A stretch of 32,013 bases of DNA from Actinomycetota bacterium (GTDB lineage Bacteria > Actinomycetota > Thermoleophilia > Solirubrobacterales > Thermoleophilaceae). The stretch is from assembly GCA_019246335.1 (NCBI GenBank), contig JAFAQQ010000117.1, positions 1 to 32,013 on the forward strand, in the 5' to 3' direction. The translations under genes were made by a program, and so were the position numbers. Below, piece by piece: positions 3,855 through 29,291 of the stretch; within the stretch, counting starts at the first letter, position 1, and every line of letters starts with the position of its first letter. The notes under the pieces are model-generated. The model saw only the letters and a list, made by a program, of their open reading frames with translations, was not told the origin of the DNA and did not search any database.

Positions 3855-4871
3855 CTAGTACGAGCTCCCCAACGCCATCGGCCCGTGCTCGGGCAGGCCG
3901 GCGAGGAGCCGGGCGAACATCCCCTGGAGGGTCTCCTGGCCGTAGGGGTGGCTGCCGTCGTCCATCGTCAGGACCGCGACCGACACGCGCGTGTGCCCGT
4001 GCGTCAGGAGGGCGACCTGGTGGTCGACCCTGCCCGTACCCGAGCCCCAACCGCCCTTGAAGAACAGACGCCATCCGGGCGGCTGGACCTGACCGACGCC
4101 CCACCGCTGCCATGGGACGATCGTCTCGAGCAGGTTCATCGCATACGCGCGGTGCCGCGGCGGGATCAGCTTGTCGATGTAGAGGAAGAACTCGGTCTGG
4201 TCCTGCGCGTCGATCTGGCTGTTTCCCCAGATGGGATACGACGGAGAGAAATGCTCCATGTGCGCGTCGAGCGCGAGCTGATCGAGTCCCTGCTCGCCGA
4301 CCATGTTGAACATGCGGTCCGCGGCGTTGTTGTCGGACCACCGGATCATCGGCTCGATTGTCCCGCGCTCGTCCGCAGTCAGGTCACGGTCGCGCACGTC
4401 CGGGCGGCGGAGGTACGCGACCATCAGCATCGGCTTCAGCACGCTGGCCGACGGATAGATGCGCGTGTCGTACCAGCCCCAGTAATGGCTCCGCGTGCGC
4501 ACGGCAAACGCGATGACCCCGGTCCGCGAGAGCGCGTACTGGATTGCCGAGCCCGTGTCCGGGATCCAGGGCTTGATCCGGATCCCGCGCGCGCTCTCCG
4601 AGCGGGGCGTCGAAGGCGGCTTGGCGGGCGCGGCCTCCGCCCAGGCGCCGACGATGACGACGAGGGCGGCAAGCAGGGCGGCGATGCGGGCCCGGTGTCG
4701 AGCGATCGCGACGATCGCGGGATTGTAGGCGCGGCCTGGGACCCGGCCGAGCGAGTCGCTACTCTGCGCGCCGGCGCCACCGGCTGCAAGGGACGCGGTG
4801 GCGCCGGGCGAACCGGCCCGGCCGCAACTTAAGCCGCGGTGACCGGTTGGTACGGCCCATGGGCCGCCCAC
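3855..4871 (-). CDS. Secreted serine hydrolase, beta-lactamase/transpeptidase-like (paralogue of 2291-3820)
   Basis: The catalytic domain carries SASVLK (Ser-x-x-Lys), WSDNNA and FFKGGWGSG, the three boxes of the beta-lactamase/DD-peptidase fold. It aligns along its length with the convergent neighbour (MLMVAYLRR/MLLVAYLRK, SDNNAA, FKGGW), so the two are paralogues that now face each other. No ExxLN deacylation motif is visible and the third box is KGG. A clear membrane-export segment (RIAALLAALVVIVGAWAEAAPA) lies about 60 residues into the frame, but no ATG, GTG or TTG codon precedes it closely: the in-frame choices are GTG 4871 (used here) and GTG 4922. Both give an unusually long, Gly/Ala-rich stretch before the signal segment. 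The true start could be a non-standard codon. The function is inferred only to the level of an envelope serine hydrolase or transpeptidase. Confidence 0.68.
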   Translation of the reverse strand: MGGPWAVPTGHRGLSCGRAGSPGATASLAAGGAGAQSSDSLGRVPGRAYNPAIVAIARHRARIAALLAALVVIVGAWAEAAPAKPPSTPRSESARGIRIKPWIPDTGSAIQYALSRTGVIAFAVRTRSHYWGWYDTRIYPSASVLKPMLMVAYLRRPDVRDRDLTADERGTIEPMIRWSDNNAADRMFNMVGEQGLDQLALDAHMEHFSPSYPIWGNSQIDAQDQTEFFLYIDKLIPPRHRAYAMNLLETIVPWQRWGVGQVQPPGWRLFFKGGWGSGTGRVDHQVALLTHGHTRVSVAVLTMDDGSHPYGQETLQGMFARLLAGLPEHGPMALGSSY

Positions 4872-4941
4872 CGGCGCGAATCGTGACGTCCCTGTGCCGC
4901 CAAAGCGGGGGCGATGGCGCACACGATGGCAACCGCAAGCG

Positions 4942-4948
4942 AAGGAGG
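4942..4948 (+). promoter_or_regulatory. Ribosome-binding site deciding the start at 4955
   Basis: AAGGAGG at 4942-4948 is a perfect Shine-Dalgarno match. It abuts an in-frame ATG at 4949, which is too close, and lies six bases before GTG 4955, which is ideal spacing. It therefore favours the GTG start for the downstream gene. Confidence 0.6.
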
Positions 4949-4954
4949 ATGTGG

Positions 4955-6751
4955 GTGAGGCTCCGACGAGTGCTGGCCGTGACGCCCGTGATCGGCCTCT
5001 TGGGCGGCGTCCCGGTCGTCCAGGGCGCCGACACGCTCAGCGTCTACCCCACCGCCGGCACCCAGACGGCTTCGCCGACGACCCAGATCAGCTTTCGCGG
5101 CGCGGCGACCGCCCCCGCCGCGTCCGTCCTTGTCTCCGGCTCCGCCACCGGACCGCATAGCGGCACGGTCGAGAACCACTCCGACGGGAACGGCTTCAGC
5201 TTCATCCCCGACCAGAGCTTCCAGCCCGGCGAGACGGTGAGCGTCCAGGTCATGGGCTACGACCTGGTGGGGGAGCAGAACGGCTCGGTCAGCTTCCAGA
5301 TCTACACCCCGGTCCCCCACCTCAAGCTGGTCCCCAACCCGGACGCCGGCGGCACGGCCAAGAAGTCCCAGCACTTCCACTCGGAGCCCCATCTCCTGCC
5401 CCCGTTCCTCGTGGTCATGACCAAGAAGGGCGGCACGGCGCCGGGCGACCTCTTCACCGCGCCCAAGATCAGCCGCGGCCAGGATGGCGCGATGATCACG
5501 AACAAGCGCGGGCAGCTCATCTGGTTCCACCCCGCCCCCAAGGGCACGAGCATCTACGACTTCCGCGTGCAGCACCTCGGTGGACAGCCGGTGCTCACCT
5601 GGTGGCAGGGGAAGACCCTGTTCGCCAAGGGGTACGGCAAGGGCGTGATCTACGACACGACCTACCGCAAGATCGGGCAGGTCACGGGCGCGAACGGGTA
5701 CAAGCCCGATCTCCACGAGTTCGAGCTGGGCCCCGACGGGACCGCGTACACCACGAACTACCAGCCGGTCATGTACGACGTCAGCTCGATCACCGGCACG
5801 CCCGGGCAGATGGGCAAGCTCTTCGACTGCGTGATCCAGGGGATCGACATCAAGACCGGCCTCGTGAAGTTCGAGTGGCACTCGCTCGACCACATCCCGC
5901 TCACCGACTCCTACTTCCGGTTCATAGCGAGCGCCGTCGACCCCTTCGACCCGGTCCACCTGAACTCGGTCGAGCCGGAGCCGAACGGGAACCTGCTGCT
6001 CTCCGGGCGCAACACGAGCGCCGCCTACGAGATCGATCCCTCGAGCGGAAACATCCTCTGGCGGCTCGGCGGAAAGAGCTCGGACTTCTCCATGGGCCCG
6101 CGCGCGTCGTTCGTCGCCCAGCACGACGTGCGCCGGCGACCGGACGGTGACATCACGGTCTTCGACAACGGGACGCCGCCCCAGAGCCCGTCGCAGAAGC
6201 CGCGACCCGCTCGGGGCATCCAGCTTCACCTCGACATGAACGCCCACACGGCGACCCTCGTGCACAAGTTCAAGCGGCGGCAGAAGACGTTCGCGGCGAG
6301 CCAGGGCAACGTCGAGACCCTGCCGAACGGCAACGTCTTCGTCGGCTGGGGTGGATCGTCGCCGTACATGTCCGAGTTCAAGAGCGACGGGAGCCTGGTC
6401 TTCGACGCCCGGTTCGACCCGGGCGGGTCCACGATCGGGACGGACACGAACAGCTACCGCGCGTACAAGCTTCCCTGGAGCGCGCGGCCCTACTTCCCGC
6501 CGAAGCTCGCGCTGGAGAGCGTCGGCGGCGGGAAGCTGGAGGTCTACCTGAGCTGGAACGGCGCAACCGACGTGGCCAAGTGGGAGGTCCTCGCCGGCTC
6601 GAGCCCGAGCACGCTGAAGTCTGTGAAGAGGTTCCACCACAACGGTTTCGAGTCGAGCACGAGGATCCCGTCGAGCTACAAGTACGTGGCCGCGCGGGCG
6701 CGTGCGTCCGACGGCTCCGTGCTCGGGACGACCCAGACCGTCAAGCGGTAG
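4955..6751 (+). CDS. Arylsulfotransferase (ASST) family protein, exported
   Basis: The N-terminus (VLAVTPVIGLLGGVPVVQGAD) is a signal peptide, followed by a beta-rich domain of about 100 residues and then a propeller-like region. Diagnostic stretches are LHEFELGPDGTAY, VIQGIDIKTGLVKFEW, EPNGNLLLSGRNTSAAYEID, ILWRLGGK, QHDVRRRPDGDITVFDNG and NVETLPNGNVFVGWG. These match the actinobacterial arylsulfotransferase group, in which repeated D/N-G blades form a beta-propeller. Characterised ASSTs move sulfate between phenolic compounds through a histidine; the His of QHDVRR is a candidate, but the reaction in this branch is unproven. A C-terminal fibronectin-like segment (EVYLSWNGATDVAKWEVLAG) follows the propeller. 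GTG 4955 is chosen because of the AAGGAGG six bases upstream. The protein is 598 residues and ends in a shared hairpin with the convergent deacetylase gene. Confidence 0.8.
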   Translation: MRLRRVLAVTPVIGLLGGVPVVQGADTLSVYPTAGTQTASPTTQISFRGAATAPAASVLVSGSATGPHSGTVENHSDGNGFSFIPDQSFQPGETVSVQVMGYDLVGEQNGSVSFQIYTPVPHLKLVPNPDAGGTAKKSQHFHSEPHLLPPFLVVMTKKGGTAPGDLFTAPKISRGQDGAMITNKRGQLIWFHPAPKGTSIYDFRVQHLGGQPVLTWWQGKTLFAKGYGKGVIYDTTYRKIGQVTGANGYKPDLHEFELGPDGTAYTTNYQPVMYDVSSITGTPGQMGKLFDCVIQGIDIKTGLVKFEWHSLDHIPLTDSYFRFIASAVDPFDPVHLNSVEPEPNGNLLLSGRNTSAAYEIDPSSGNILWRLGGKSSDFSMGPRASFVAQHDVRRRPDGDITVFDNGTPPQSPSQKPRPARGIQLHLDMNAHTATLVHKFKRRQKTFAASQGNVETLPNGNVFVGWGGSSPYMSEFKSDGSLVFDARFDPGGSTIGTDTNSYRAYKLPWSARPYFPPKLALESVGGGKLEVYLSWNGATDVAKWEVLAGSSPSTLKSVKRFHHNGFESSTRIPSSYKYVAARARASDGSVLGTTQTVKR

Positions 6752-6778: not shown

Positions 6779-7678
6779 TCAGCCGGCGGAGCCCGCGGAC
6801 GGCTGGGGGCCGGAGCCGCTGCCGGCCACCAAACCCAGGACGGTCGCCGCGGTGGCCGAACGGCCGACGTGGATCCGCGGTATCTCGAGCGGCGCCGACG
6901 TTGACGCCGTGGTCCCGGCCTTCGTCGTGACCGCCAGCAGGAAGCCCGCGCGACGGACCGCCGCGACGACGGCCGGGTCGAACGCCCCGTACGGATACGC
7001 GAACCAGTACACGGGGTGCCCGAGGATCTGGCGGAGGTCGCTCGCGGAGCCGTCGATCTCGGAGCGCCGGCGCGCGGCCGGCAGCACCGGAAGGTCGGCG
7101 TGGGTCCGCGTGTGGGCGCCGACGTCCATGCCGGCCGCCTCGAGCTGCCTGATCTGGTCGGAGCTCAAGAAGCCCTGCTCGTGGGTGCGACCGGTGATCA
7201 CGTAGAACGTCGCCGTCATGCCGAGCCGGCGAAGCACCGGCAGAATCTCGGTCACGTCGTCGACGTAGCCGTCGTCCACGGACACGATCACCGGCTTCGG
7301 CGGGAGCGCGGCGCCGCCGTACATCGCGTCGAAGAGCTGGCGCTGAGTGACCGTCCGGTACCCCGCGCGGTGCAACGCCTCCATCTCGGCCTGGAACGTG
7401 CCCGGCTCGACGGTCAGGTCGGGGGTCGACTTCTTGAGCTCCGTCGCGTAGGCGTGCACGCGGTGGTAGGTGAGGATCGGCACGCGGACGGCGTGCGTGG
7501 CGAAGCGCTGCGGGACGCTCAACGGCCGGAAGGCAGGGCGGGCCGGCGCCGAGGGCGCGCTCGGCTTCGAAGCGGGGGCGCCGCCGCGCGCCGGCCGAGG
7601 ACCGGTCGAGCCGCAGCCCGCGCCGCCGAGGAGCGCGAGAGCGGCCAGGAGCGCCGGCAGCCATCGTGGGCGTCGCAT
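6779..7678 (-). CDS. Polysaccharide deacetylase (NodB/CE4 family), exported
   Basis: The protein has 299 residues. Its N-terminus (WLPALLAALALLGGAGCGS) is a signal peptide with a possible, weak lipobox at Cys22, followed by a Pro/Ala-rich linker to about residue 55. The CE4 core shows the entry motif PILTYHRV (67-74), motif 1 VSVDDGYVDD with Asp135-Asp136, the zinc-binding His189-x3-His193 (AHTRTH), and the later motif WFAYPYGAFD. Members remove N- or O-acetyl groups from cell-wall or extracellular polysaccharides using a metal held by Asp and two His residues, all present here. The ATG at 7678 directly precedes the signal peptide. It converges on the arylsulfotransferase-family gene and starts 12 bases beyond the stop of the GNAT gene, which is read in the same direction, so the two may be co-transcribed. 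The exact substrate cannot be told from sequence. Confidence 0.88.
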   Translation of the reverse strand: MRRPRWLPALLAALALLGGAGCGSTGPRPARGGAPASKPSAPSAPARPAFRPLSVPQRFATHAVRVPILTYHRVHAYATELKKSTPDLTVEPGTFQAEMEALHRAGYRTVTQRQLFDAMYGGAALPPKPVIVSVDDGYVDDVTEILPVLRRLGMTATFYVITGRTHEQGFLSSDQIRQLEAAGMDVGAHTRTHADLPVLPAARRRSEIDGSASDLRQILGHPVYWFAYPYGAFDPAVVAAVRRAGFLLAVTTKAGTTASTSAPLEIPRIHVGRSATAATVLGLVAGSGSGPQPSAGSAG

Positions 7679-7689
7679 GCGGACGGAGA

Positions 7690-8178
7690 CTACGAGGGCG
7701 GCTCCGAGTCGCCGGCGGGCTCGACGTCCTTCACGAAGTACCGGCCGCCGTCGCGCATCCCGAACCGGCGGTACAGGTGGTGCGCGTTGGTGCGCTCGTA
7801 GCCGGACTCCAGCGTGAGGACCCGGCACCCGCGCGCCGCGGCCCGCTGCTCCGCCTCGGCCAGCATTGCGGCGCCGATCCCCTCCCTGCGGGAGGCCTCC
7901 CTCACGACGAGGTCGGGTATCCACGCGTCCTCCCGCACCTGGTTCAGCCGAGGCCGGAAGTGAAGCGAGCAGAAGGCGACGACTTCCCCTTCCGCGTCGA
8001 CGGCGACCATGTGGTGGGAGTTCGGGTCCACCACCTGCTGGCGGAAGAGCGCCTCGCAGTGGTCGCGCGTCTCCGGGGTCACCCGCGCGCGGCCGAGCCG
8101 CTCGAGCAGCCCGGTCACCGCCTCGAAGTCGTCTCCGCGGGCGGCCCGTATCCGGTTTTGGGAGCGGGTTGGGGGCAT
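7690..8178 (-). CDS. GNAT-family N-acetyltransferase
   Basis: This 162-residue protein has the GNAT layout: an N-terminal strand (RIRAARGDDFEAVTGLL), a central strand with VAVDAEGEVVAFCSL, the acetyl-CoA binding segment PDLVVREASRREGIGAAML (R/Q-x-x-G-x-G/A at about 97-103), and the C-terminal NAHHLYRRFGMRD block that usually packs on CoA. It should transfer an acetyl group from acetyl-CoA to a small molecule or protein amine in the cytoplasm; the acceptor is unknown. The ATG at 8178 is the start that begins the first GNAT strand. A candidate promoter lies immediately upstream, so the transcript would have almost no leader. It is divergent from the PAC2-family gene (75-base gap) and lies 11 bases upstream of the deacetylase start. 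Confidence 0.85.
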   Translation of the reverse strand: MPPTRSQNRIRAARGDDFEAVTGLLERLGRARVTPETRDHCEALFRQQVVDPNSHHMVAVDAEGEVVAFCSLHFRPRLNQVREDAWIPDLVVREASRREGIGAAMLAEAEQRAAARGCRVLTLESGYERTNAHHLYRRFGMRDGGRYFVKDVEPAGDSEPPS

Positions 8179-14494: not shown

Positions 14495-15547
14495 ATGCGG
14501 GTGGTGGTCGTCGGCGCGACGGGGAACGTGGGCACGAGCGTGCTGCGCGCGCTAGCCGACGAGCCCCAGGTCGAATCCGTGCTCGGGATCGCCCGACGAA
14601 GCCCGCCCCTGGTGTGGCCGAAGGTCTCCTGGGCTCGGGCGGACATATCGCGCGACGAACTGCGCCCGCACTTCGAAGGCGCCGACGCGGTGGTGCACCT
14701 GGCGTGGCTCATCCAGCCCTCCCGCGACATGGCGACGCTCCGCGCGACGAATGTCGAGGGCAGCCAGCGGGTGTTCCACGCGGCCGGGGCCGCGGGCGTG
14801 CGGGCGGTCGTCTACGCGTCGTCGGTCGGCGCCTACTCGCCGGGGCCGAAGGATCGCCGCGTGGACGAGGGCTGGCCGACCGACGGCATCGAGTCGTCGT
14901 TCTACTCGCGTCACAAGGCCGAGGTCGAGCGCCAGCTCGACCGGTTCGAGCTGGAGTTCCCGGACGTTCGTGTCGTGCGCCTGCGCCCGGGCCTGATCTT
15001 CAAGCGAGAGGCGGCCGCGGAGATCCGCCGCTACTTCGTGGGGCCGCTGCTGCCGGGCCTCCTGATTCGGGAACCGCTGATCCCGGTCGTGCCGGACGTG
15101 CCGGGCCTACGGTTCCAGGCGGTCCATTCCTTCGACGTGGGGAACGCCTACCGGCTCGCGCTGGTGCGCGACGTGCGCGGGGCCTTCAACATCGCCGCCG
15201 ACCCGGTGCTCGACCCCGATGAGCTCGCCGATCTCCTCGGCGCGCGGAAGGTCCCCTTGCCTGCGGAAGCCCTGCGGGCCGCGGCCGGCGCGACCTGGCG
15301 GATGCGCCTGCAGCCCTCGCCGGTCGGATGGGTCGACATGGCGCTCGGCGTCCCGCTGCTCGACACGACCCGCGCGCGGGAAGAGCTCGGCTGGGAGCCG
15401 CGATGGAGCTCGCGCGACGCCTTGCTCGACCTCCTGCACGGCCTGCGCGACGGCTCCGGAGTGGACACGCCCCCGCTCGACCCCCGTGCCGGCGGACCGC
15501 TCAGGATGCGCGAGATCCTGACCGGGGTCGGCGGCCGCTCGGCCTAG
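14495..15547 (+). CDS. NAD-dependent epimerase/dehydratase (extended SDR)
   Basis: The 350-residue protein begins with the Rossmann motif VVVVGATGNVG (G7-x-x-G10-x-x-G13). It keeps the active-site set of the extended short-chain dehydrogenases: VYASSVGAYS and Tyr137-x3-Lys141 (YSRHK). The middle region RLRPGLIF and the later HSFDVGNAYRLAL and FNIAADPVL match the NAD-dependent epimerase/dehydratase family that modifies nucleotide sugars or related substrates. No export signal is seen. The last 100 residues hold LDTTRAREELGWEPRWSSRDALLDLL, which is typical of this family's C-terminus. The ATG at 14495 is the natural start. It is followed by a strong hairpin (15583-15605) after the stop. The substrate cannot be named. 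Confidence 0.87.
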   Translation: MRVVVVGATGNVGTSVLRALADEPQVESVLGIARRSPPLVWPKVSWARADISRDELRPHFEGADAVVHLAWLIQPSRDMATLRATNVEGSQRVFHAAGAAGVRAVVYASSVGAYSPGPKDRRVDEGWPTDGIESSFYSRHKAEVERQLDRFELEFPDVRVVRLRPGLIFKREAAAEIRRYFVGPLLPGLLIREPLIPVVPDVPGLRFQAVHSFDVGNAYRLALVRDVRGAFNIAADPVLDPDELADLLGARKVPLPAEALRAAAGATWRMRLQPSPVGWVDMALGVPLLDTTRAREELGWEPRWSSRDALLDLLHGLRDGSGVDTPPLDPRAGGPLRMREILTGVGGRSA

Positions 15548-15947: not shown

Positions 15948-17624
15948 TTATCCCTGGCGGAACAGCTGATCAGCCGGGATGGCGCGCAGCCCGCGGCTCC
16001 GCAGCTCCGACGTGAGCGCCTCGAGGGTCGCTCGCCAGTTCGATCCCCGGCCGGCGCCGACCTCCACCACGTCGCCGCGGTGGACGCTGCCGAGTGACCC
16101 CGACCCGCTGAGGCGGAGCTTGCCGCGGATGGCCGAGGCGCCCGCCGTCTTGCCTAGGAGGTCCTGCGTGATCGTGAAGCCGTGCCTTGGTGGCGCGTAA
16201 TAGATGTGCCCCGACTCCCCGAGCTCTCGCGCCATGTGCTTGATCTGCTGGCGCGTTCCGACCCAGCGCACGGGACCGCCGCCCTTGAGACGGGGGATGA
16301 GGTCGCTGCCGTTCGCTCGCACGTCCCCCACGGTGGCCGGGTCCACCTCGCCGTTCGTGGCGATCGAGCCGCTCGCGCCCGCCCGCTTGAGCTGCGCGGA
16401 GACCGGCACGACAAGCGAGCTCGGCGCGTCGACGATCACGCCGACCTGCGGCCGGCTCGTCCGCACGGATGTGGCGGGCCGGATCCCGAACAGGGCTGCG
16501 AACGCGGAGAACGAGTCGTCCGAGGCGACTCCCCACGCGAGCAGTCCGGCCGCCGCCGCGGTCGCGAGCGCACGCCGCGCGATCGGAGCCGGCAGAGCCG
16601 GAAAGCGCGGGGTGAGGCGACCGCGCCAAGGCGCCGAAACGGGCGCGGGGACGGGCTGGCGCACCGGGACGCCCTCGACAGGCTCGTTCGCGCGGCGCCA
16701 CTCCACGTAGCGGCGGACTCCCTCGCGGAACGGCGTGGAGGCGCTCCAGCCGAGCTCGGTCTGCGCGCGCTCGCTCGACACCTCCTTCCCGCCGAAGTCG
16801 CCCGCACGCGCCTCGGTATGCACGATCTCGACGTCGCCGAGCAGATCACGGACGGTCTGCGCGATCTCGAGGATCGTCGTGGTCTCGGTGCCGGCGAGGT
16901 TGAACACCCGGTTCGCGGCCCCGGGACGCAGTCCCGCGACGATCCCCTCCGCCAGGTCCTCGACGTAGACGAAGCGCCGGCCCTGGCTGCCGTCTCCAGC
17001 CACGGTGAGCGGCTCGCCGTTCAGCGCGCGCTCGACCATCGCGGGCACGACGGCGGCGACTCGCGCGCGCGGCCCGTACGGGATGCCGAAGCGCAGGATG
17101 GTGTAGTCGACCCCGTAGAGCTCCGCGTAGGAGCGGCAGTAGAGCTCGCCGGCGAGCTTGGTGGCCGTGTAGAGGTGGCCGGGGTGGGCCAGCCTCGTGC
17201 TCTCGTCGACGACCTGCTCCGGGCAATCGCTGTAGACCCAGATCGTGCTGCCGTAGACGACGCGCTCGACTTCCGTGTTGCGAGCCGCCTCGAGCACCGC
17301 GGCGGTGGCGCGCGCGTTGGCCCGCTCGGCCCCGACCGGGTCCGCCTGGACGTGGCCGACGTCGGCCATCGCCGAGAGGTGGATCACAGCCGAACAGCCC
17401 TCCATCGCGCGCTCGAGCGCCTTCGGGTCGGTGGCGTCGCCGACGACGGTTGCGACGCTGCCGCGTTCGTGATGCGGCGACTCGCGAAGGTCGAAGATGC
17501 GCGGCTCGTAGCCGCCGCGGGCAAGGACGTCCACGACGTGAGACCCGATGAAGCCGGATCCGCCCGTCACAAGGACACGCGGGCGGCTGCCATTCGAGGC
17601 CTGGTGGGAGAACGGGGTCTGCAT
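15948..17624 (-). CDS. NAD-dependent epimerase fused to a membrane-anchored degenerate deacetylase-like domain
   Basis: Residues 1-320 are an extended SDR epimerase: VTGGSGFIGSH (G21-x2-G24-x2-G27), IHLSAMADVGH, YGSTIWVYSD, Tyr152-x3-Lys156 (YTATK), RRFVYVEDLAEGIVAGL and FNLAGTE, as in UDP-sugar 4-epimerases. A Pro-rich linker leads to one hydrophobic segment (about 350-366, RRALATAAAAGLLAWGVA), then a 165-residue C-terminal domain. That domain follows the order of a NodB deacetylase: VGVIVDAP at the DDGP position, LKRAGASGSIATNGEV, IYYAPPRHG where RPPYG is usual, and NWRATLEALTSELRSRGLRAIPADQL as the closing helix and strand. The metal ligands are gone, so a binding role is likelier than catalysis. 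ATG 17624 is the first good start. The fold call for the C-terminus is an inference from pattern. Confidence 0.75.
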   Translation of the reverse strand: MQTPFSHQASNGSRPRVLVTGGSGFIGSHVVDVLARGGYEPRIFDLRESPHHERGSVATVVGDATDPKALERAMEGCSAVIHLSAMADVGHVQADPVGAERANARATAAVLEAARNTEVERVVYGSTIWVYSDCPEQVVDESTRLAHPGHLYTATKLAGELYCRSYAELYGVDYTILRFGIPYGPRARVAAVVPAMVERALNGEPLTVAGDGSQGRRFVYVEDLAEGIVAGLRPGAANRVFNLAGTETTTILEIAQTVRDLLGDVEIVHTEARAGDFGGKEVSSERAQTELGWSASTPFREGVRRYVEWRRANEPVEGVPVRQPVPAPVSAPWRGRLTPRFPALPAPIARRALATAAAAGLLAWGVASDDSFSAFAALFGIRPATSVRTSRPQVGVIVDAPSSLVVPVSAQLKRAGASGSIATNGEVDPATVGDVRANGSDLIPRLKGGGPVRWVGTRQQIKHMARELGESGHIYYAPPRHGFTITQDLLGKTAGASAIRGKLRLSGSGSLGSVHRGDVVEVGAGRGSNWRATLEALTSELRSRGLRAIPADQLFRQG

Positions 17625-17795: not shown

Positions 17796-18701
17796 CTACC
17801 CGATCTCGGGCCGCGGGACGTCGGGGTCGGCCGCCGTCGGCGCCTCCCGCGGGAGCGCGTCGATCTCCCCGGTGTCGAGTGGGAGCGCCGCCCGGCAGAA
17901 CCCCTCGCCGAACGCCGTCAGGTGAATGCTGCGGCGGACGGTCCGGCCGCGGCCGGCGCGCTCCATCGCCTCCGCCACCTCCGGCTGCGCCTCCAGTACC
18001 TGGTAGCGGCGAACGTCGGGCAGCGCCTCCCGTGCGAACCAGATCAGGCCGAGCCGGGAGAGGTTGTCCAGATAGGCGTGGACTCGATCCAGCCTGCGCA
18101 CGCCGGCCTGGGCGCCGATCATGCTGAGGCCGGGCGCCACGAGCTCGGAGTTGATCGCCGCGAGCGGGCCTCCGGTGCGAACGTCCACCGACGGTTGCGG
18201 CCCCTCGAGCGCGAGCAGCCTGAGGACGCGGGCCTCATCCGGCGCCAGCTCCTCGAGGATGCGCACGTACGCGGGATGCCCCTCGTCGTCCGGCGTGAGC
18301 TCGGCGGACCGTCGCAAGAGCTCGGCGCCGCGCTCGCGAAGCGTCGCCTGGGTCGCGTGGCCGTCGACAGTCGCGCCGGCGGGTTCGAAGGGCGCGGCGC
18401 CGGCAGCGGGCGCACCCCCGTTGACATCGGACTCGCGGATGTCGAGCAGCTCGCGCAGGTAGCGGCGGAGCTCCGTCTCGGCCTCCTGGACGAGGACGGT
18501 CGGCGACTCTCCGCGGGCCGCCCCGCGTACGACCCGGATGCTCGCTCGAAGCGAGGTCTGGAGCGTCCACCCCGTGGCGCGCCACCAGGCGCCGGCCGCG
18601 AGCCGGGCGAGCACCGGGGCTGCACGCACCAGGCTCGGCTCGGGCCCGGCCCGCTGAGCCGAAGGGCCGCGGGGGCTTGTCGATCGACTCGGCGCCGCCA
18701 T
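17796..18701 (-). CDS. DUF4393 (Abi-alpha-like) protein
   Basis: The 301-residue protein has a short hydrophobic segment near the N-terminus (VRAAPVLARLAAGAWWRATGWTL, about 25-50). Its central region, LAPDEARVLRLLALEGPQPSVDV, and GVRRLDRVHAYLDNLSRLGLIWFA resemble DUF4393, the domain also called Abi-alpha. In that family one member has been linked to abortive phage infection, but most are chromosomal genes of unknown role. The ATG at 18701 begins three bases after the stop of the DUF445 gene, so the two form an operon and are probably translated in a coupled way. That pairing suggests a membrane-associated job, not defence. The Pro/Arg-rich N-terminus is low-complexity. The start could lie a few codons either way. 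Confidence 0.68.
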   Translation of the reverse strand: MAAPSRSTSPRGPSAQRAGPEPSLVRAAPVLARLAAGAWWRATGWTLQTSLRASIRVVRGAARGESPTVLVQEAETELRRYLRELLDIRESDVNGGAPAAGAAPFEPAGATVDGHATQATLRERGAELLRRSAELTPDDEGHPAYVRILEELAPDEARVLRLLALEGPQPSVDVRTGGPLAAINSELVAPGLSMIGAQAGVRRLDRVHAYLDNLSRLGLIWFAREALPDVRRYQVLEAQPEVAEAMERAGRGRTVRRSIHLTAFGEGFCRAALPLDTGEIDALPREAPTAADPDVPRPEIG

Positions 18702-18704
18702 GCT

Positions 18705-19967
18705 CTAGGCGAAGAGCGCCAGGTGCGCCAGGCCGCCGACGACACCGAGCGCCGCGCCGTGCAGGAGCAGCAGCCACTCGTCCTCGCGCATGGCCGATCG
18801 CAGCATCTCGGAGAAATCGGCGGGCGGCATCTCGCGCATCCTCTCGGTAAGGAGCGTCTTGACGGGCGCCGCTCGGGCGCGATTGAACTCCGGATCCGTT
18901 AGGGGGGTCATCGACTGGTCAATCCCCTCGAGCGCGACCGACTCGCGGATGGCATCGTACTCCCGCGGCCCCACCGCGAGGCGTACGAGCGGTCGCACGC
19001 CGCCGACAGCGCGGTCGACCGCCGGCCGCAGCGTGTTCGCGAGCAGCTGCCGCGTTCGATCGGCGCGGGCGCCGTGGAGGAGCTCGTCGGTCAGGTTCGC
19101 GAGCGTGACGATGTCCTCCGAGATCACCTCCGCGTAGACCTCCGAGACCTCGTGCTGGCGGCGCAGGAAGAGGCCGTGCACGAGGAGGCCCCCGACGCGC
19201 CGAGGCTCGACCGGCTCGAAGATCATCAGGATGGCGAGCCAGTTGGTGACCCAGCCGACGATCGGCCCGCAGATAAGGAGCACCCAGGGCGAGCCCAGGA
19301 TGCCGGTCAGGACGGCGACCGGGATGCCGAGCACGAAGCCGAAGATCGCCCCGAAGTTGATGATGAGCCGCAGCTCGCGGTCGCCGACCGACTTGAAGAT
19401 CCGGTTGGCGAGCTCCGGATGCTGCTCGATGCGGCGGATCACCATCAGCTTCACGTCGAGCAGGTCGTCGATATTGGCGCCGATCTCACGCGTGACGTCG
19501 CGGATGAGGTCCGGGTACTGGCGCTCGACACGCTCGTGTATCGCCGCGCGGAGCTCCGGCGTGAGGTCGCGCCAGAGGGCCGGGTGCTCGCGCTCCATTA
19601 CGCGCTCGACCAGCTCGCTGACGTCCCCCGACTGGACGATGTGCTCGGCGATGCCGTCGGGATCCAGCGTCTCGTAGAAGTCGCCCGGGCGGCCGAGCTT
19701 CGCGATTCCCTTGTCGACCGCGATGCTCCCCATCTTCGCCGCGCGCGACGGGATGATCCCCTGCCATCCGGCGCCGCCGACCATGACGCCCGGGATCTGC
19801 TGCACGCGCCGCGGCAGGATGCGAGCCAGCCGCGCGAGTCCCGGCAGCCGGAAGCCCGCGAACTTGACGGGGTAGAAGAGCATCCACACGCCGGTCCAGT
19901 TCGTGACGTAGCCGATCGCCGCCGAGAACAGCGGGATCGTCAAGAGGCTTATCGTCTCGCCGCCCAT
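18705..19967 (-). CDS. DUF445 family integral membrane protein
   Basis: The 420-residue protein has the DUF445 shape: an N-terminal membrane helix with SAAIGYVTNWTGVWMLFYPV, then a long soluble region of helices, a central pair of membrane helices (IINFGAIFGFVLGIPVAVLTGI and SPWVLLICGPIVGWVTNWLAILMIFEPV) and a C-terminal hydrophobic tail (LLLLHGAALGVVGGLAHLALFA). The repeated GYVTNW/GWVTNWLAI motif near each membrane segment is characteristic of the family. Its function is unknown; relatives occur widely in bacteria as cell-envelope proteins. The ATG at 19967 has an AGGGAG site five bases upstream (GACAGGGAGCCG before ATG). The DUF4393 gene follows after three bases, which suggests one transcript. 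It is divergent from the small membrane protein at 20049. Confidence 0.85.
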   Translation of the reverse strand: MGGETISLLTIPLFSAAIGYVTNWTGVWMLFYPVKFAGFRLPGLARLARILPRRVQQIPGVMVGGAGWQGIIPSRAAKMGSIAVDKGIAKLGRPGDFYETLDPDGIAEHIVQSGDVSELVERVMEREHPALWRDLTPELRAAIHERVERQYPDLIRDVTREIGANIDDLLDVKLMVIRRIEQHPELANRIFKSVGDRELRLIINFGAIFGFVLGIPVAVLTGILGSPWVLLICGPIVGWVTNWLAILMIFEPVEPRRVGGLLVHGLFLRRQHEVSEVYAEVISEDIVTLANLTDELLHGARADRTRQLLANTLRPAVDRAVGGVRPLVRLAVGPREYDAIRESVALEGIDQSMTPLTDPEFNRARAAPVKTLLTERMREMPPADFSEMLRSAMREDEWLLLLHGAALGVVGGLAHLALFA

Positions 19968-24194: not shown

Positions 24195-25118
24195 TCAGGC
24201 GGCGCGACGCCGCAGGATCCGCTCGGCCAGCTCGACGCCGTCGCGAGGGTGGTCGAGCTCGAGCTCCACGCGGAACCGCCCGGCGTGCGGCCGGACCCTC
24301 ACCTCATGGCCGGTCGCCGCCGTGAGCGCGTCCTCGGCGGCCCCGATCGCGTCGGCAAGGTCGGGATGGATCACGATCTCGCGCCCGGTCTGCGTGCCTC
24401 GGCGCGCGTCGTGCCCGCGTGCGTGCCGCTCGGTCTCCCGCACGGACCAGCCGTGATCGCGCGCCTCGCGACCGAGTGAAAGGCGGCGCGAATGGTCCTT
24501 GCAGAGGAGCAGCGCGCGGCCGTGCCCGGCCGACAGCGCGCCTCGCTCGATCATCTGCACGACCTCGTCGGGGAGCTCGAGCATCCGGACCAGGTTCGCG
24601 ACGGCGGCGCGGCTTCGGCCGACCCGCCGCGCGACCTCCTCCTTCGTGAGTCCGAGGTCCTCGACCAGCGTCGCGCACGCGCGCGCCTCCTCGATCGGAT
24701 TGAGGTCCGCCCGCGCCATGTTCTCGATCAGGGCCAGCTCGAGCCGCTCGGCCTCTGCGGTCTCGCGGACGATCGTGGGGATGCGATCGAGGCCGGCCGC
24801 CTTCGCGGCGCGAAGCCGGCGCTCACCCGCGACCAGCTCGTAGCGGCCGCCGACAAGCGGGCGCACCACCACCGGCTGCAGCACACCACGCGCGCGTATC
24901 GATTCCGCCAGCGCCGCCAGCAGATCGTCGTCGAACACCCTTCGCGGTTGGGTGGGGTTCGGCGCGATCAGCTCGATCGGGAGCTCGCGCAGACCCGACG
25001 GCCCCGCGGCCTCTGGTGACGAGATGATCGCCGCCAGGCCGCGGCCCATTCCGCGCGCCACCCCGGCGCGCCCCGGCTCCGAACTGGGTGCGCGGTCCGC
25101 GCGAGCCGGCTCAGCCAC
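24195..25118 (-). CDS. parB: Chromosome-partitioning protein ParB
   Basis: The 307-residue protein has the ParB/Spo0J order: a low-complexity N-terminus with GVARGMGRGLAAII, the CTPase/NDPase fold with PNPTQPRRVFDDDLLAALAESI (box I region), VLQPVVVRPL, YELVAGERRLRAAKAAG (box II, GERR), VRETAEAERLELALIENMARADLNPIEEARA, and the helix-turn-helix GLTKEEVARRVGRSRAAVANLVRMLELP. A C-terminal dimerisation region follows. ParB binds parS, loads as a CTP-dependent clamp and works with ParA to segregate origins. A GTG at 25118 starts the gene, overlapping the last eight bases of parA, so the pair is translationally coupled. A parS site lies in this cluster at 26715-26730. No terminator is certain after its stop. 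Confidence 0.96.
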   Translation of the reverse strand: MAEPARADRAPSSEPGRAGVARGMGRGLAAIISSPEAAGPSGLRELPIELIAPNPTQPRRVFDDDLLAALAESIRARGVLQPVVVRPLVGGRYELVAGERRLRAAKAAGLDRIPTIVRETAEAERLELALIENMARADLNPIEEARACATLVEDLGLTKEEVARRVGRSRAAVANLVRMLELPDEVVQMIERGALSAGHGRALLLCKDHSRRLSLGREARDHGWSVRETERHARGHDARRGTQTGREIVIHPDLADAIGAAEDALTAATGHEVRVRPHAGRFRVELELDHPRDGVELAERILRRRAA

Positions 25119-25869
25119 GTGCCGCGACCTCCTTCGCGAGCCTCAGGTACGCCACGGCGCCGGAGCAGCGCGGGTCGTGGCGTGTGACCGGCACGCCAAA
25201 GCTCGGCGCCTCGCTGACCCGGACGTTGCGCGGGATCACCGATTCGAAGACCAGATCCGGGAAGTGCTGCCGCAGCTCGGCCTCGACGTCCTGCGCCAGG
25301 CGCGTACGCCCGTCGTGCATCGTCAGGACCATTCCGGACACGACCAGGCGGGGGTTGAGCTCGCGCTGGATCAGAGCGAGCGTGTCGAGTAACCCGGCCA
25401 GGCCCTCCAGTGCGAAGTACTCGGTCTGGACCGGCACGAGCACCCGGTCCGCGGCTACGAGCGCGTTCACCGTCAGCGGGCCGAGCGACGGCGGGCAGTC
25501 GAGGATCGTGAAGAGATAGCGGTCCCGGAAGCCCTCGAGCGCCTCTCGGAGCCTCGTCTCCGATCCGGGCTCTCGCGGCAGCTCCATGTTCGCCCCGGCG
25601 AGGTCGGGCGTGGCCGGGGCGAGCCAGAGGCCCGGCACGTCCGTCGTGACGACGGCGTCCTCGAGCGGCGCCGTGCCCGACAGCACCTCGTAGACGCTCG
25701 GGTCGTGGTCCTTGGGGACGCCAAGGGCCACGGTCGCATTGCACTGCGCGTCGAGGTCGACGAGCAGCGAGTCGTACCCCGCCTCGGCGACGCAGGCCGA
25801 GACGTTCACGGCGGTGGTCGTCTTGCCGACGCCGCCCTTCTGGTTCGCAACGGCGTAGATGATCCCCAT
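25111..25869 (-). CDS. parA: Chromosome-partitioning ATPase ParA (Soj)
   Basis: The 252-residue protein begins MGIIYAVANQKGGVGKTTTAVN, the deviant Walker A (KGGVGKT) of the ParA/MinD family. It continues with LLVDLDAQCNATVALGV (Walker A' DxD), ILDCPPSLGPLTVNAL (Walker B) and VPVQTEYFALEGLAGLLDTL. The C-terminal SVIPRNVRVSEAPSFGVPV is the typical Soj ending. It is a DNA-binding ATPase that positions ParB-bound origins. ATG 25869 is the family start; further in-frame ATGs upstream (25929, 26016) would add non-homologous residues overlapping rsmG. No clear ribosome site precedes the ATG. It follows rsmG by 73 bases and overlaps parB by eight. Confidence 0.97.
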   Translation of the reverse strand: MGIIYAVANQKGGVGKTTTAVNVSACVAEAGYDSLLVDLDAQCNATVALGVPKDHDPSVYEVLSGTAPLEDAVVTTDVPGLWLAPATPDLAGANMELPREPGSETRLREALEGFRDRYLFTILDCPPSLGPLTVNALVAADRVLVPVQTEYFALEGLAGLLDTLALIQRELNPRLVVSGMVLTMHDGRTRLAQDVEAELRQHFPDLVFESVIPRNVRVSEAPSFGVPVTRHDPRCSGAVAYLRLAKEVAARG

Positions 25870-25942
25870 CGGCGGCGACCGTACCGGCGAGCGCGGTCGG
25901 AAGGATGGTGTCCGCGCTTGTATCCCCATGCGGGTGCCCGGA

Positions 25943-26722
25943 TCACCCAAGCGGGCGCTTCGCGGCGACCCCAGGGCGGCGTGGAAACCGCTCCGGCGTC
26001 GGGCTGGTCTTGACATACACGTGCAGGTGACGGTTGAGGCTGGCGGGGTACGGCCGCACCGGGATCACCCGCGACAGCTCGAGGCCCACCCTCTGTGCGG
26101 CACGCACGCCGCTGTCCTCCTCGGCGGCCTCCCGCTGACCCTTCCAGGCGACGAGCACGCCTCCGATGCGCAGCAGCGGCGCCGCGAACTCGACGAGAAC
26201 CGCAAGTGGGGCAACCGCGCGTACGGTGGCGGAGTCGTAGGCCCCCCGGCCGTCCCCGAGCGCCACGTCCTCGGCGCGTGCGGCAATCGCGCGAGCGTTG
26301 GCAGCCGCGGCCGTGCCGGCGAGTCGCACGATCAGCTCCGCCTTCCGCCGCGAGGACTCGATCAGATCCACGCGTGCGCGAGGCAGCGCGATCGCGAGCG
26401 GCAACCCCGGGAAGCCGGCGCCCGCCCCCAGATCCGCGATCCGCCGCGCGGCGCGAAGCTCGTCGACCTCAAGCCCGGCCAGGCTGTCCGCGATGTGAAC
26501 ATCGACGGCGTCCTCGAGGGCAACGGTGGTATGTGGGTCGGGCTCGGCGGCGAGCGCCTCGAGGAGGTCCTCGAGCTGCCGGCGGGCGCCGTCGGGAAGC
26601 CGGTGGAGGCCGGCGAGCTCATCAAGGCGGCTCGAAGAATGTATGGCGCGCTGCTGAGGTCCATTCTCCGCACCTATAGCGCCACGAGACGACCCTTGAC
26701 CCTCGTGTCGCGGCCGTTTCAC
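25943..26722 (-). CDS. rsmG: 16S rRNA (guanine-N7)-methyltransferase RsmG
   Basis: The methyltransferase core is clear: HIADSLAGLEV, then the SAM site RRIADLGAGAGFPGLPLAIALP (G-x-G-x-G-x-P-G) followed by RVDLIESSRRKAELIVRLAG, ARAEDVALGD and a later GGVLVAWKG. RsmG methylates G527 of 16S rRNA (E. coli numbering). In this actinobacterial style, the usual WN..NLT stretch is replaced by a degenerate N-terminus (AAEPDPHTTVALEDAVDVHIADS). The only ATG, GTG or TTG start in frame before the core is GTG 26722, giving 259 residues; this codon is inside the parS palindrome (CACGTG core). About 35 residues after it look poorly conserved, so a rarer start codon further in is possible. The gene lies between jag and parA. 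Confidence 0.93.
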   Translation of the reverse strand: MKRPRHEGQGSSRGAIGAENGPQQRAIHSSSRLDELAGLHRLPDGARRQLEDLLEALAAEPDPHTTVALEDAVDVHIADSLAGLEVDELRAARRIADLGAGAGFPGLPLAIALPRARVDLIESSRRKAELIVRLAGTAAAANARAIAARAEDVALGDGRGAYDSATVRAVAPLAVLVEFAAPLLRIGGVLVAWKGQREAAEEDSGVRAAQRVGLELSRVIPVRPYPASLNRHLHVYVKTSPTPERFPRRPGVAAKRPLG

Positions 26723-26730
26723 GTGAAACG
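26715..26730. promoter_or_regulatory. parS centromere site
   Basis: CGTTTCACGTGAAACG is a perfect 16-base palindrome matching the parS consensus (TGTTTCACGTGAAACA) in 14 inner bases. It lies between jag and rsmG, about 850 bases upstream of parA, where ParB would load. I saw no second copy in the window. Confidence 0.93.
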
Positions 26731-26753
26731 CGGCCGCGCGGACGGCTCGACCG

Positions 26754-27230
26754 CTACCCCGCGCCCCTGACCGGCGTCACGACCAACCGGCGTTCCGGCT
26801 CGTCCCCCTCGCTGTGCGTCTGGACCTCGGTGCGGTCCCGGAGGTATGTATGGACGATTCGTCGCTCCGCGGCCGACATCGGCTCGAGCTCGACTGGCCG
26901 GCCGAAATCGAGCGCGTCGGACACGGCGCGGTCGGCGGCCCGCTGCAGCGCGGCTTCGCGGCGGTCCCGATAGCCGGCGGCGTCCAGCACCAGCAGCTTG
27001 CGCTCGGCGTCGCCGCGAAACGCCGCCCGGGCGGCCAGGTGCTGCAGCGCGTCGATCGTCCCGCCGTGCTTGCCGATCAGGCGGCCGAGATCGTCGCCGT
27101 TGATAGTGGCCCTGATGGCCTCTTCGTCCTCCTGGATGTCCACGGACGCGCGCAATCCCATCGCCGAGGTCACGCGGGTAACAAGCGACCGCACGCGCTC
27201 TGCGGCGTCCTGGTTCCCCTGGTCGGTCAC
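26754..27230 (-). CDS. jag: Jag/KhpB-type RNA-binding protein (KH and R3H domains)
   Basis: The 158-residue protein has the Jag layout without the N-terminal Jag_N domain: a helical start, then a type II KH domain (ATINGDDLGRLIGKHGGTIDALQHLA, with the GxxG loop GKHG), and an R3H domain (MSAAERRIVHTYL, R-x3-H). In firmicutes KhpB/Jag binds many RNAs and affects cell division and shape; in this cluster it follows yidC, as in most bacteria. GTG 27230 is chosen because AAGGAGGGG lies about ten bases upstream; GTG 27272 is also in frame, four bases after the yidC stop. The gap to the parS/rsmG start is 31 bases. Confidence 0.9.
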   Translation of the reverse strand: MTDQGNQDAAERVRSLVTRVTSAMGLRASVDIQEDEEAIRATINGDDLGRLIGKHGGTIDALQHLAARAAFRGDAERKLLVLDAAGYRDRREAALQRAADRAVSDALDFGRPVELEPMSAAERRIVHTYLRDRTEVQTHSEGDEPERRLVVTPVRGAG

Positions 27231-27276
27231 GCCGGAAGTCCCCTCCTTCTCCCGTTCTCGATCCGGAACCACAGGG

Positions 27277-28167
27277 CTAGCGGCGCCTGCCCGAGCGCTT
27301 CTTCTTCTTGCGCGGGGAAGGTGGCGGCGCTTTGCGCGGCCCGCCGTTCCCGTCCCCGCCGCCGGCGGCGCCCGCCTTGGCGGCGGCCCGCGCGGGCGCC
27401 TTCACAGCCGAGGCGCCGTCACCCCCGCCAGGCCGCGGCTTGCGGCCGCGGGACGACGAGGTCGCGGCGGCCGCGCCCGCCGGCAGCGGCTCGGGCGGCG
27501 GGAGGAAGCGCTTCACGGCGAGCTGCTGGCCGATCGTCCACATGTTGGTCGTGATCCAGTAGACGATCAGGCCGGCGGGAAACCGGATGATCACGAAGAC
27601 GAAGATGAACGGCAGCAGCAGCATGATCCGCCGCTGGTTCTGGTCCTGCGCATTGATCATCGTGACGAGGCTCGCGCCGAGCTGGGTCGCGACGTAGATC
27701 ACGATCAGCGTCACGAGCACCGCCGGGTGGTTCGTCACGGGCTTCGTGAGGTTCGGGATGAACAGGAATCCCGACCCGTGGACCTCCTGCTTGAAATGCG
27801 TCGAGCGCTGCAGCTGGTACAGGGAGATGAAGAACGGCAGCTGGAGAAGCAGCGGGAAGCAGGAGGCGAGCGGATTGACCTGGTGCTCCTGGTAGAAGGC
27901 CATGATCTCCTGCTGCTGGCGCTTCTTGTCGTCCTTGTAGCGCTCCTGGATCCGCTTCATCTCCGGGGCCAGGCGCTGCAGCGCCTGCATCGAGCGGATC
28001 TGCTTGAAGGTCAGCGGGAGGATCGCGAGCCGGATGACGACCGTCAGTCCGACGATCGACATCCCCCACCCGAAGCCGACCTGGTTGTGGAAGAACTTCA
28101 GGATCGCCTCGTTGAGGTCGACGAGCGGCTGGAGGAACTTCCAGACGGCGAGCGGGACCGGGATCAC
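27277..28167 (-). CDS. yidC: Membrane protein insertase YidC
   Basis: The 296-residue protein matches Gram-positive/actinobacterial YidC: WKFLQPLVDLNEAILKFFHNQ, a first helix with SIVGLTVVIRLAILPLTF including the conserved Arg in the hydrophilic groove, the cytoplasmic loop LAPEMKRIQERYKDDKKRQQQEIMAFYQEHQVNPL, and FPLLLQLPFFISLYQLQR. Later helices are LVTLIVIYVATQL, IMLLLPFIFVFVIIRFPAGLIVYWITTNMW. It ends in a long Lys/Arg/Ala-rich tail (PRKKKKRSGRRR), which in such proteins binds ribosomes. GTG 28167 overlaps the yidD stop as GTGA, which settles the start and shows coupling. It inserts membrane proteins with or without SecYEG. Jag follows. Confidence 0.96.
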   Translation of the reverse strand: MIPVPLAVWKFLQPLVDLNEAILKFFHNQVGFGWGMSIVGLTVVIRLAILPLTFKQIRSMQALQRLAPEMKRIQERYKDDKKRQQQEIMAFYQEHQVNPLASCFPLLLQLPFFISLYQLQRSTHFKQEVHGSGFLFIPNLTKPVTNHPAVLVTLIVIYVATQLGASLVTMINAQDQNQRRIMLLLPFIFVFVIIRFPAGLIVYWITTNMWTIGQQLAVKRFLPPPEPLPAGAAAATSSSRGRKPRPGGGDGASAVKAPARAAAKAGAAGGGDGNGGPRKAPPPSPRKKKKRSGRRR

Positions 28168-28418
28168 CGCGTCGACCTCGCTCTGAAGATGCGCTGGTTC
28201 TCGACGGGGTCCAACCCGCCGTTCGAGAACGGGTTGCAACGCAGTACGCGCCAGGCAGCGAGCACGAGGCCGCGCACGACACCGTGCGCTCGCACGGCGT
28301 CGACCGCGTACTCGGAGCAGCTCGGGTAATACCGGCAGCGCGCTCCGAGCAGCGGCGACACGATCCGGCGGTAGAGCCGGATCGGGCCTACGAACAGCTC
28401 GCGCAGGGCGACCGTCAC
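28164..28418 (-). CDS. yidD: Membrane-protein insertion efficiency factor YidD
   Basis: The 84-residue sequence shows the YidD signature: LYRRIVSPLLGARCRYYPSCSEYAVDAVRAHG, then RVLRCNPFSNGGLDPV. The three cysteines (in CRYYPSC and RCNP) are conserved in the family. YidD helps YidC-dependent insertion at the inner face of the membrane. The gene starts at ATG 28418, overlaps the rnpA stop by four bases, and its own stop overlaps the yidC start by four bases, so rnpA, yidD and yidC are tightly coupled. Confidence 0.95.
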   Translation of the reverse strand: MTVALRELFVGPIRLYRRIVSPLLGARCRYYPSCSEYAVDAVRAHGVVRGLVLAAWRVLRCNPFSNGGLDPVENQRIFRARSTR

Positions 28419-28810
28419 GCAGCCGGCCTCTCGATCAGGCCCGCCGCGTCGACGAGCTGGCGCAGGGCGGCCTCCATCTCGCGCTCGCCACCCTCGCGCG
28501 CCAGCCGACCCGCCTCGGGACGTGCGACGACGACGAAGTCGTGGCGGTCGGGAAGCTCGGGCGCAACGCTGCGGAAAGCCTCGCGGAGCAGCCGCTTCAC
28601 GCGATTGCGCTCGACGGCCCCGCCGACCTTGCGACCGACCGAAACGCCGAGTCGCGGCTCACCGTCGCCGTCCGTCCGGGGGAACGCGTAGAGCACGAGG
28701 TGGCGCGTGGCGTGCGAGCGGCCCTCGCGGTAGACGCGGTCGAAATCGGCGCTTCGCGACAGCCTCTGGCGCCTGCCGCGGCGTCGGGCGCCGCCGTCGG
28801 AGCCGGCCAC
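28415..28810 (-). CDS. rnpA: Ribonuclease P protein component RnpA
   Basis: The 131-residue protein is the RNase P protein: RRQRLSRSADFDRVYREGRS at the start, HLVLYAFPR, RLGVSVGRKVGGAVERNRVKRLLREAFRS with the RNR motif that binds P RNA, and DFVVVARPEAG. It helps mature tRNA 5' ends, joined to the P RNA (not found in this window). GTG 28810 lies two bases beyond the rpmH stop, so translation is coupled. The same frame is open far upstream, through rpmH to 29131, which is either a GC-rich artefact or a longer form. The stop overlaps yidD by four bases. Confidence 0.94.
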   Translation of the reverse strand: MAGSDGGARRRGRRQRLSRSADFDRVYREGRSHATRHLVLYAFPRTDGDGEPRLGVSVGRKVGGAVERNRVKRLLREAFRSVAPELPDRHDFVVVARPEAGRLAREGGEREMEAALRQLVDAAGLIERPAA

Positions 28811-28812
28811 GG

Positions 28813-28947
28813 CTACGCCGTGAGCCGCCTGCGGCCCTTGCTCCGGCGCCGCTTCAGGATCTGCCTGCCGGCGCGCGTGCGCATGCGCGCTCGGAAACCG
28901 TGCGTGCGGGCTCGCTTGCGCTTCTTCGGCTGATAGGTGCGCTTCAT
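28813..28947 (-). CDS. rpmH: 50S ribosomal protein L34
   Basis: Read leftward from ATG 28947, the 44-residue product starts [18 protein letters not shown], contains [19 protein letters not shown] and ends RRRLTA, a full-length L34. This very basic protein binds 23S rRNA in the large subunit. It heads the leftward origin operon and is followed after two bases by rnpA. The likely promoter is the TATACT at 28987-28982. No strong ribosome site is seen before the ATG. Confidence 0.98.
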
Positions 28948-28981
28948 TGGGAGGCGGGCCGAAGCGGCCGGACAGCCTCAG

Positions 28982-28987
28982 AGTATA
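28982..28987 (-). promoter_or_regulatory. Candidate -10 box of the rpmH operon
   Basis: TATACT, read leftward at 28987-28982, matches TATAAT in five of six bases. It would give a leader of roughly 27 bases before the rpmH ATG at 28947. No close -35 match is found 16-18 bases upstream. Confidence 0.5.
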
Positions 28988-29171
28988 GGCAGCGGCACCC
29001 CTGCGACCGCGGCCCTCGACGCGGTTGCGCACAGGTCGTGAACAGCCCTCCACAGCACATTTACGACCGGCGCCATCCGAGCGCTCGGCGAGCGCTCTCG
29101 GCGGGCCGAACCGGGCCGCGGCGCTTTTCACCGCGATTTGCGGGAACCCCTCAAAAGGGGGGATTCAAGCG

Positions 29172-29201: not shown

Positions 29202-29291
29202 GGCCCGCGCCAGAGGCCGATCCCCCGCTCCGGGTGGCGCCTCTCCTCCAGATAGCCACCGCAGATCCGCCCAGGGAGGCGCCGCCCACCC

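What the first reader, a model, noticed from the sequence alone, without database searches (positions are those of the whole stretch)
15948..17624. Epimerase fused through a membrane helix to a NodB-like domain without metal ligands
The first 320 residues keep a full SDR active site (Tyr152/Lys156). The C-terminal 165 residues follow the order of a polysaccharide deacetylase, but the DDG and HxxxH positions are replaced and RPPYG reads APPRHG. Joining a cytoplasmic sugar-nucleotide enzyme to a membrane anchor and an apparently inactive glycan-binding fold is unusual and could couple sugar synthesis to an envelope site.
Basis: partly seen in the sequence, partly recalled or inferred. Interest (0 to 1): 0.6.

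Follow-up and report, generated by a model that had tools for sequence, protein, structure and literature searches.

The report
Sugar enzyme tethered to dead deacetylase
A soil actinobacterium carries a sugar-nucleotide enzyme joined through one membrane helix to a catalytically dead deacetylase domain outside the cell; relatives show it is probably the remnant of a larger sugar-lipid building protein that has lost its middle (glycosyltransferase) part.

Summary
Minus-strand gene 15948-17624 (558 aa) is an intact extended SDR (Tyr152/Lys156), one N-in/C-out membrane helix (350-366) and a C-terminal domain that no Pfam model hits. An AlphaFold model from 30 relatives (pLDDT 86.8) matches only CE4 proteins with confidence in the PDB; the best hit is the CE4 pseudoenzyme BA3943. 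Metal histidines, catalytic base and the MT4/MT5 motifs are gone; only one MT1 Asp remains. The same fusion occurs in five genomes of two genera, so it is not an assembly artefact.

New here: the pseudo-CE4 domain is an unnamed family found in 64 of 232 genomes of the order. Elsewhere it is the tail of GT-TM-pseudoNodB or SDR-GT-TM-pseudoNodB proteins (GT = MGDG-synthase-like), usually encoded beside an intact NodB deacetylase, with a DegT aminotransferase, EamA-like protein or PAP2 phosphatase. The window form lacks the GT but keeps the pre-membrane WRxR footprint. This genome's own DegT/NodB/EamA/GT cluster (contig C51) lacks its SDR, so the window protein probably supplies it.

Likely function: a membrane-tethered SDR feeding an amino-sugar-lipid pathway. 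Architecture is well supported, GT loss moderately; the chemistry is inferred.

The parts
15948..17624 (-). 558-aa SDR-TM-pseudoNodB gene (P0001)
   Evidence: ORF, codon bias, five genomes with the same fusion
16680..17585 (-). Extended SDR / NDP-sugar epimerase domain, residues 14-315, active site intact (TGGSGFIG, Tyr152, Lys156)
   Evidence: Pfam PF01370 E 1.6e-51; motif alignment of 43 rows; nearest solved chain 6wjb, E 1.8e-41
16578..16679 (-). Cytoplasmic linker, residues 316-349, where larger relatives carry the glycosyltransferase
   Evidence: domain maps of 63 loci
16614..16628 (-). WRGRL motif, residues 333-337: counterpart of the WRxR stretch that follows the GT in the larger relatives
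   Evidence: side-by-side pre-TM sequences
16521..16577 (-). Single transmembrane helix, residues about 350-368, N-in/C-out
   Evidence: helix in model; more Lys/Arg before than after the helix in 63 of 63 relatives
15957..16472 (-). Extracytoplasmic pseudo-CE4 (pseudoNodB) domain, residues 385-556
   Evidence: model pLDDT 86.8; Foldseek PDB best hit 6hm9, E 1.7e-8
16422..16433 (-). Degenerate MT1 motif VDAP (398-401) in place of DDGP
   Evidence: merged alignment with intact NodB proteins
16179..16196 (-). Degenerate MT3 motif APPRHG (477-482) in place of RPPYG
   Evidence: hhalign and merged alignment

Best explanation
The gene encodes a membrane-tethered sugar-nucleotide SDR. It most likely derives from a larger SDR-glycosyltransferase-membrane helix-pseudodeacetylase protein by loss of the glycosyltransferase. 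The SDR works in the cytoplasm, probably as an NDP-sugar 4-oxidoreductase or epimerase. The helix holds it at the inner face of the membrane. The C-terminal CE4 fold lies outside and very probably cannot catalyse deacetylation; it probably acts as a docking or substrate-holding module. The SDR's product most likely feeds a separately encoded set in the same genome (DegT aminotransferase, MGDG-synthase-like GT, EamA-like membrane protein, intact NodB deacetylase on contig C51) that would make an amino-sugar lipid and process it on the outer face. Shown: the fusion, the predicted fold, the loss of the catalytic motifs, the topology signal, the family-wide gene association, and the absence of an SDR from its usual place in this genome's cluster. 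Inferred: GT loss (supported by tree and footprint), substrate, lipid acceptor, binding role, supply in trans.
For: CE4 fold. Lost catalytic motifs and a new family-specific motif near the former metal loop: P444 30/30, W454 29/30, T457 27/30, R458 26/30. Purifying selection on the pseudo domain: NG86 dN/dS about 0.26-0.49 between orthologues. Domain maps: 24 SDR-GT-pNodB, 33 GT-pNodB, 5 SDR-pNodB loci; an intact NodB gene lies within 5 kb of 19 of the 24 and 27 of the 33. The SDR-TM-pNodB clade's pseudo domain groups with that of the SDR-GT-TM-pNodB protein of G078 at 96/86, and the pre-TM WRxR stretch remains in the window. The own cluster has DegT at 1406-2524 and NodB at 2540-3445 with no room for the SDR that G007, G008, G016, G020 and G023 carry there. 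The best other SDR in the genome is only 33% identical.
Against: G007 and G020 keep both a cluster SDR and the fused one, so the fused protein need not be the pathway's SDR everywhere. The fused gene is not next to the cluster. SDR-tree support for the GT-loss order is weak (82/66 and 80/50). Genera g15 and g7 have the cluster and gave no match to the pseudo domain, so the domain is dispensable to the pathway. Sequence-only profile comparison with the intact NodB proteins is not significant (hhalign probability 1%). No substrate or partner was tested.
Confidence: 0.55

Rival explanations
1. The pseudo domain is only a passive remnant: it stays as an anchor or folding cap and has no ligand; the SDR makes a sugar nucleotide for any envelope polymer.
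For: In g15 and f2 g29 the same SDR family is fused to a multi-helix tail instead, so a tether alone can do. The pseudo domain evolves faster than the SDR (dN about 0.43 against 0.11 for G000-G002).
Against: A plain anchor would not need a conserved P444/W454/T457/R458 set near the former metal loop, nor a 170-residue extracellular fold kept under purifying selection.
Confidence: 0.25
2. The C-terminal domain is an active hydrolase with a rebuilt, metal-free or otherwise displaced active site.
For: Metal-independent NodB-fold enzymes lacking both MT1 Asp residues are known (3CL6, described in PMC10967932); Asp399 and a conserved Trp-Thr-Arg set remain here.
Against: No MT5 His and no MT4 Asp, which 3CL6-type enzymes are said to keep in part, and a bona fide NodB is already encoded next to most family members.
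Confidence: 0.12
3. The fusion arose independently by joining a stand-alone SDR to a TM-pseudoNodB piece, not by loss of a GT.
For: The SDR tree does not firmly nest the SDR-TM-pNodB clade inside the SDR-GT-TM-pNodB proteins.
Against: Both domains point the same way: pseudo domain with G078 at 96/86, SDR weakly with the f3 fused forms; the WRxR footprint is kept, although it belongs to GT-TM-pNodB proteins too.
Confidence: 0.2
4. Assembly or binning artefact joining two genes.
For: Fragmented assembly of 227 contigs.
Against: The same fusion in five separate genomes of two genera, full length in four.
Confidence: 0.01

Closest known systems
CE4 / NodB polysaccharide deacetylases (Bc1960, PdaA)
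   Same: Fold, strand/helix order, positions of the motif loops
   Different: Metal His pair, catalytic Asp, MT4 and MT5 gone; no Pfam PF01522 match
CE4 pseudoenzymes BA3943 (PDB 7bkf, 6hpa, 6hm9) and BA0150 (4m1b)
   Same: BA3943 is the best structural match; 4m1b is called a pseudoenzyme in PMC10967932
   Different: 11-16% identity; fusion to an SDR or GT was not looked for there; here the domain closes a membrane-spanning biosynthetic protein
Extended SDR NDP-sugar 4-epimerases (6wjb, 4zrm)
   Same: Complete cofactor and Ser/Thr-Tyr-Lys site
   Different: Distant (145 bits at best); STIWVY motif; membrane tether and pseudo-CE4 tail
MGDG-synthase-like glycosyltransferases (PF06925)
   Same: GT domain of the larger relatives and of the own cluster
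   Different: Absent from the window protein; fused to SDR and pseudoNodB elsewhere
Arn pathway for 4-amino-4-deoxy-L-arabinose (ArnA/B/C/D/E/F; PMC12748117)
   Same: Parts list: SDR, aminotransferase, lipid glycosyltransferase, deacylase, small membrane transporter-like protein
   Different: No formyltransferase or ArnT was seen or systematically sought; GT is MGDG-like; no shared ancestry of the pathway shown

Membership tests
Extended SDR (NDP-sugar epimerase/dehydratase) | TGxxGxxG cofactor motif and Ser/Thr-Tyr-x3-Lys site | tested here: met
   TGGSGFIG, STIWVY, YTATK; PF01370 E 1.6e-51
NDP-sugar 4,6-dehydratase | Asp-Glu pair in the TDExYG-type motif | tested here: not met
   STIWVYS in its place, outgroup L022 has STDEVYG; TIGR01181 135 bits against a cut-off of 365
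CE4 / NodB fold | Deformed (beta/alpha) barrel matching CE4 structures | tested here: met
   25 PDB matches at E <= 0.001, all CE4 enzymes or pseudoenzymes, TM-score up to 0.70
CE4 active enzyme | MT1-MT5 catalytic and metal residues | tested here: not met
   Only Asp399 remains; His pair, MT4 and MT5 lost
CE4 pseudoenzyme | Measured lack of deacetylase activity | not testable with these tools
   Sequence and predicted structure only
SDR-GT-TM-pNodB family of the order | TM plus pseudoNodB tail with WRxR before the helix | tested here: met
SDR-GT-TM-pNodB family of the order | MGDG-like GT domain | tested here: not met
   Absent in all five SDR-TM-pNodB loci; G001 is cut by its contig end but the stretch between SDR end and helix is seen
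Arn-type aminosugar-lipid pathway | SDR + aminotransferase + GT + NodB + transporter encoded together | tested here: inconclusive
   All five kinds lie together in G016, G023, G008; the own cluster lacks the SDR
Arn-type aminosugar-lipid pathway | Aminosugar attached to polyprenyl phosphate or other lipid | not testable with these tools
   No chemistry data

The most novel reading that the evidence does not exclude
An enzyme/pseudoenzyme pair works across the membrane: the dead CE4 domain outside binds the flipped amino-sugar lipid, or the active NodB, and passes it on, while its cytoplasmic half (SDR and/or GT) makes the same sugar lipid, so that synthesis and outer-face processing of one glycolipid are linked in a single polypeptide. 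No such fusion was found in the papers searched.
Probability: 0.25. Interest if true: 0.75.

Novelty: new variant of a known kind. Interest (0 to 1): 0.55.

Why it matters
It identifies an unnamed family of CE4-fold pseudoenzymes that, in a sample of 397 genomes of the phylum, was not found with confidence outside this order. It also exposes a natural set of fusions and splits (SDR, GT, aminotransferase, deacetylase, transporter-like protein) that points to one uncharacterised sugar-lipid pathway in soil actinobacteria. If the dead domain is needed, it is a tractable case of a pseudoenzyme working beside an active relative.

Tried and rejected
Frameshift or assembly chimera: rejected by five genomes. 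Chance resemblance of the C-terminus: rejected by structure search; sequence-only profile tests were not significant, and the first six-sequence model was poor, pLDDT 62.5. Dehydratase reading of the SDR: rejected by the missing D-E pair. Operon with the upstream Abi_alpha and DUF445 genes: no support; G002 and G007 have other neighbours. Recent decay of the pseudo domain: not supported, dN/dS below 0.5. YN00 dN/dS mostly failed, so only NG86 values are used. Literature searches on the fusion, on glucosaminyl-diacylglycerol with a deacetylase, on NaxD, and on the class with these enzymes gave nothing usable.

Full report
Observation. The gene lies on the minus strand, 15948-17624, 558 aa. Pfam sees only the SDR, Epimerase 17-244, E 1.6e-51. 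Third-position GC is high in both halves.

Not an artefact. The whole fusion is in G002 (71% identity), G007 and G020 (63%), and its C-terminal part in G001 (72%); with the own genome these are five genomes of two genera. The C-terminal domain shows NG86 dN/dS of about 0.26 (G000-G001), 0.49 (G000-G002) and 0.27 (G007-G020), against about 0.13-0.18 for the SDR, so it is constrained, though less tightly.

Fold. With 30 relatives (A2) the C-terminal model reaches pLDDT 86.8. Foldseek against the PDB gives 25 matches at E <= 0.001, all CE4 enzymes or pseudoenzymes; the first is 6hm9, a mutant of the CE4 pseudoenzyme BA3943, and the wild type 7bkf is also in the list. Sequence profiles alone do not show this, which explains why Pfam is silent. 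In a merged alignment with 14 intact NodB proteins, the catalytic Asp is Val398, the second Asp is kept as Asp399, the His loop is missing and a family-specific P-R-L...R-W-x-x-T-R stretch follows, RPPYG is APPRHG, MT4 is deleted and LLHD is VEVG. The names of the motifs follow PMC10967932; that the first Asp is the base and the second a metal ligand is my own knowledge of CE4 enzymes. This alignment joins very distant sequences, so exact pairing in the His loop is uncertain.

Topology. One helix at 350-366; in 63 of 63 relatives more Lys/Arg precede the helix than follow it (mean 4.8 against 1.1). The SDR is therefore cytoplasmic and the pseudo domain outside (inference from the positive-inside rule).

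Family. A search of 232 genomes of the order found the domain in 64; in a phylum-wide sample of 397 genomes only the own genome gave a real match, with one marginal 32-position hit (that scan scored few candidates per genome and held few of the genera known to carry the domain). The domain sits at the end of three kinds of protein: GT-TM-pNodB (33 loci), SDR-GT-TM-pNodB (24, plus one frameshifted copy in G078) and SDR-TM-pNodB (5, the window kind). The GT is MGDG-synthase-like (PF06925). Neighbours are an intact NodB (PF01522), a DegT aminotransferase (PF01041), an EamA-like membrane protein and, in one branch, a PAP2 phosphatase. The intact NodB is within 5 kb of 19 of 24 SDR-GT-pNodB and 27 of 33 GT-pNodB loci; several contigs end before that point. 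None of the five SDR-TM-pNodB loci has such a neighbour within 5 kb.

Origin of the window form. The pseudo domains of the SDR-TM-pNodB clade group with that of G078, an SDR-GT-TM-pNodB protein, at 96/86. The SDR tree makes the clade single (99/95) and puts it near the same proteins with weak support. The WRxR stretch that follows the GT in larger relatives is still present before the helix in the window, G001 and G002. Loss of the GT is the simplest reading.

Own genome. Contig C51 carries DegT (1406-2524, +), NodB (2540-3445, -), EamA-like (3094-4269, +) and GT (4176-5042, -, cut by the contig end). In G007, G008, G016, G020 and G023 an SDR of the same family stands between DegT and NodB; here there is no room for it. 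The best other SDR in the genome is 33% identical to the window protein. Hence the proposal that the window protein supplies this step in trans. G007 and G020 have both copies, so the supply is not exclusive there. The clusters of G001 and G002 are cut or missing in their assemblies and cannot be judged.

Function. The parts list resembles the Arn pathway (PMC12748117) but membership is not shown. The own DegT protein keeps an SFYATK lysine motif (read from the sequence). The SDR has no dehydratase D-E pair. The PAP2 and MGDG-like genes suggest a diacylglycerol acceptor in at least one branch; this is inference. The recurrence of membrane tails on this SDR (pseudoNodB, or multi-helix tails in G016, G023, G048) suggests that placing the SDR at the membrane matters.

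Verdict. Real, probably ordinary in chemistry, unusual in build: a new variant of a known kind. Confidence is high for fold and family, moderate for GT loss, low to moderate for the proposed pathway and for the binding role of the dead domain.

Noticed in passing
L125 (G000:C51) 1406-5042: Own-genome cluster DegT / NodB / EamA-like / GT with no SDR between DegT and NodB, where relatives have one.
   Followed up: yes
L091 6776-9595 (G168) and L153 3525-6413 (G171): SDR-GT-TM-pNodB proteins whose SDR active site is also degenerate (YTATK reads RAATR or RSVAG).
   Followed up: partly
window 6779-7924 (-): A separate polysaccharide deacetylase with a lipobox-like GCGS stretch and an AYPYG motif; PF01522 genes also lie on the contigs of the window gene's orthologues in G001 and G002.
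   Followed up: partly
window 24195-31886: A ParA-like gene (25111-26016, -) with another minus-strand gene after it, and dnaN (30771-31886, +): the contig may hold the replication origin region.
   Followed up: no
window 17796-19967 (-): Upstream Abi_alpha (PF14337) and DUF445 genes; the neighbours differ in G002 and G007.
   Followed up: no
window 14495-15547 (+): A second SDR-type gene (Epimerase, E 2.8e-18) that converges on the window gene.
   Followed up: no
L042-L046: SDR-GT proteins with a membrane helix and short tail but no pseudoNodB domain.
   Followed up: partly
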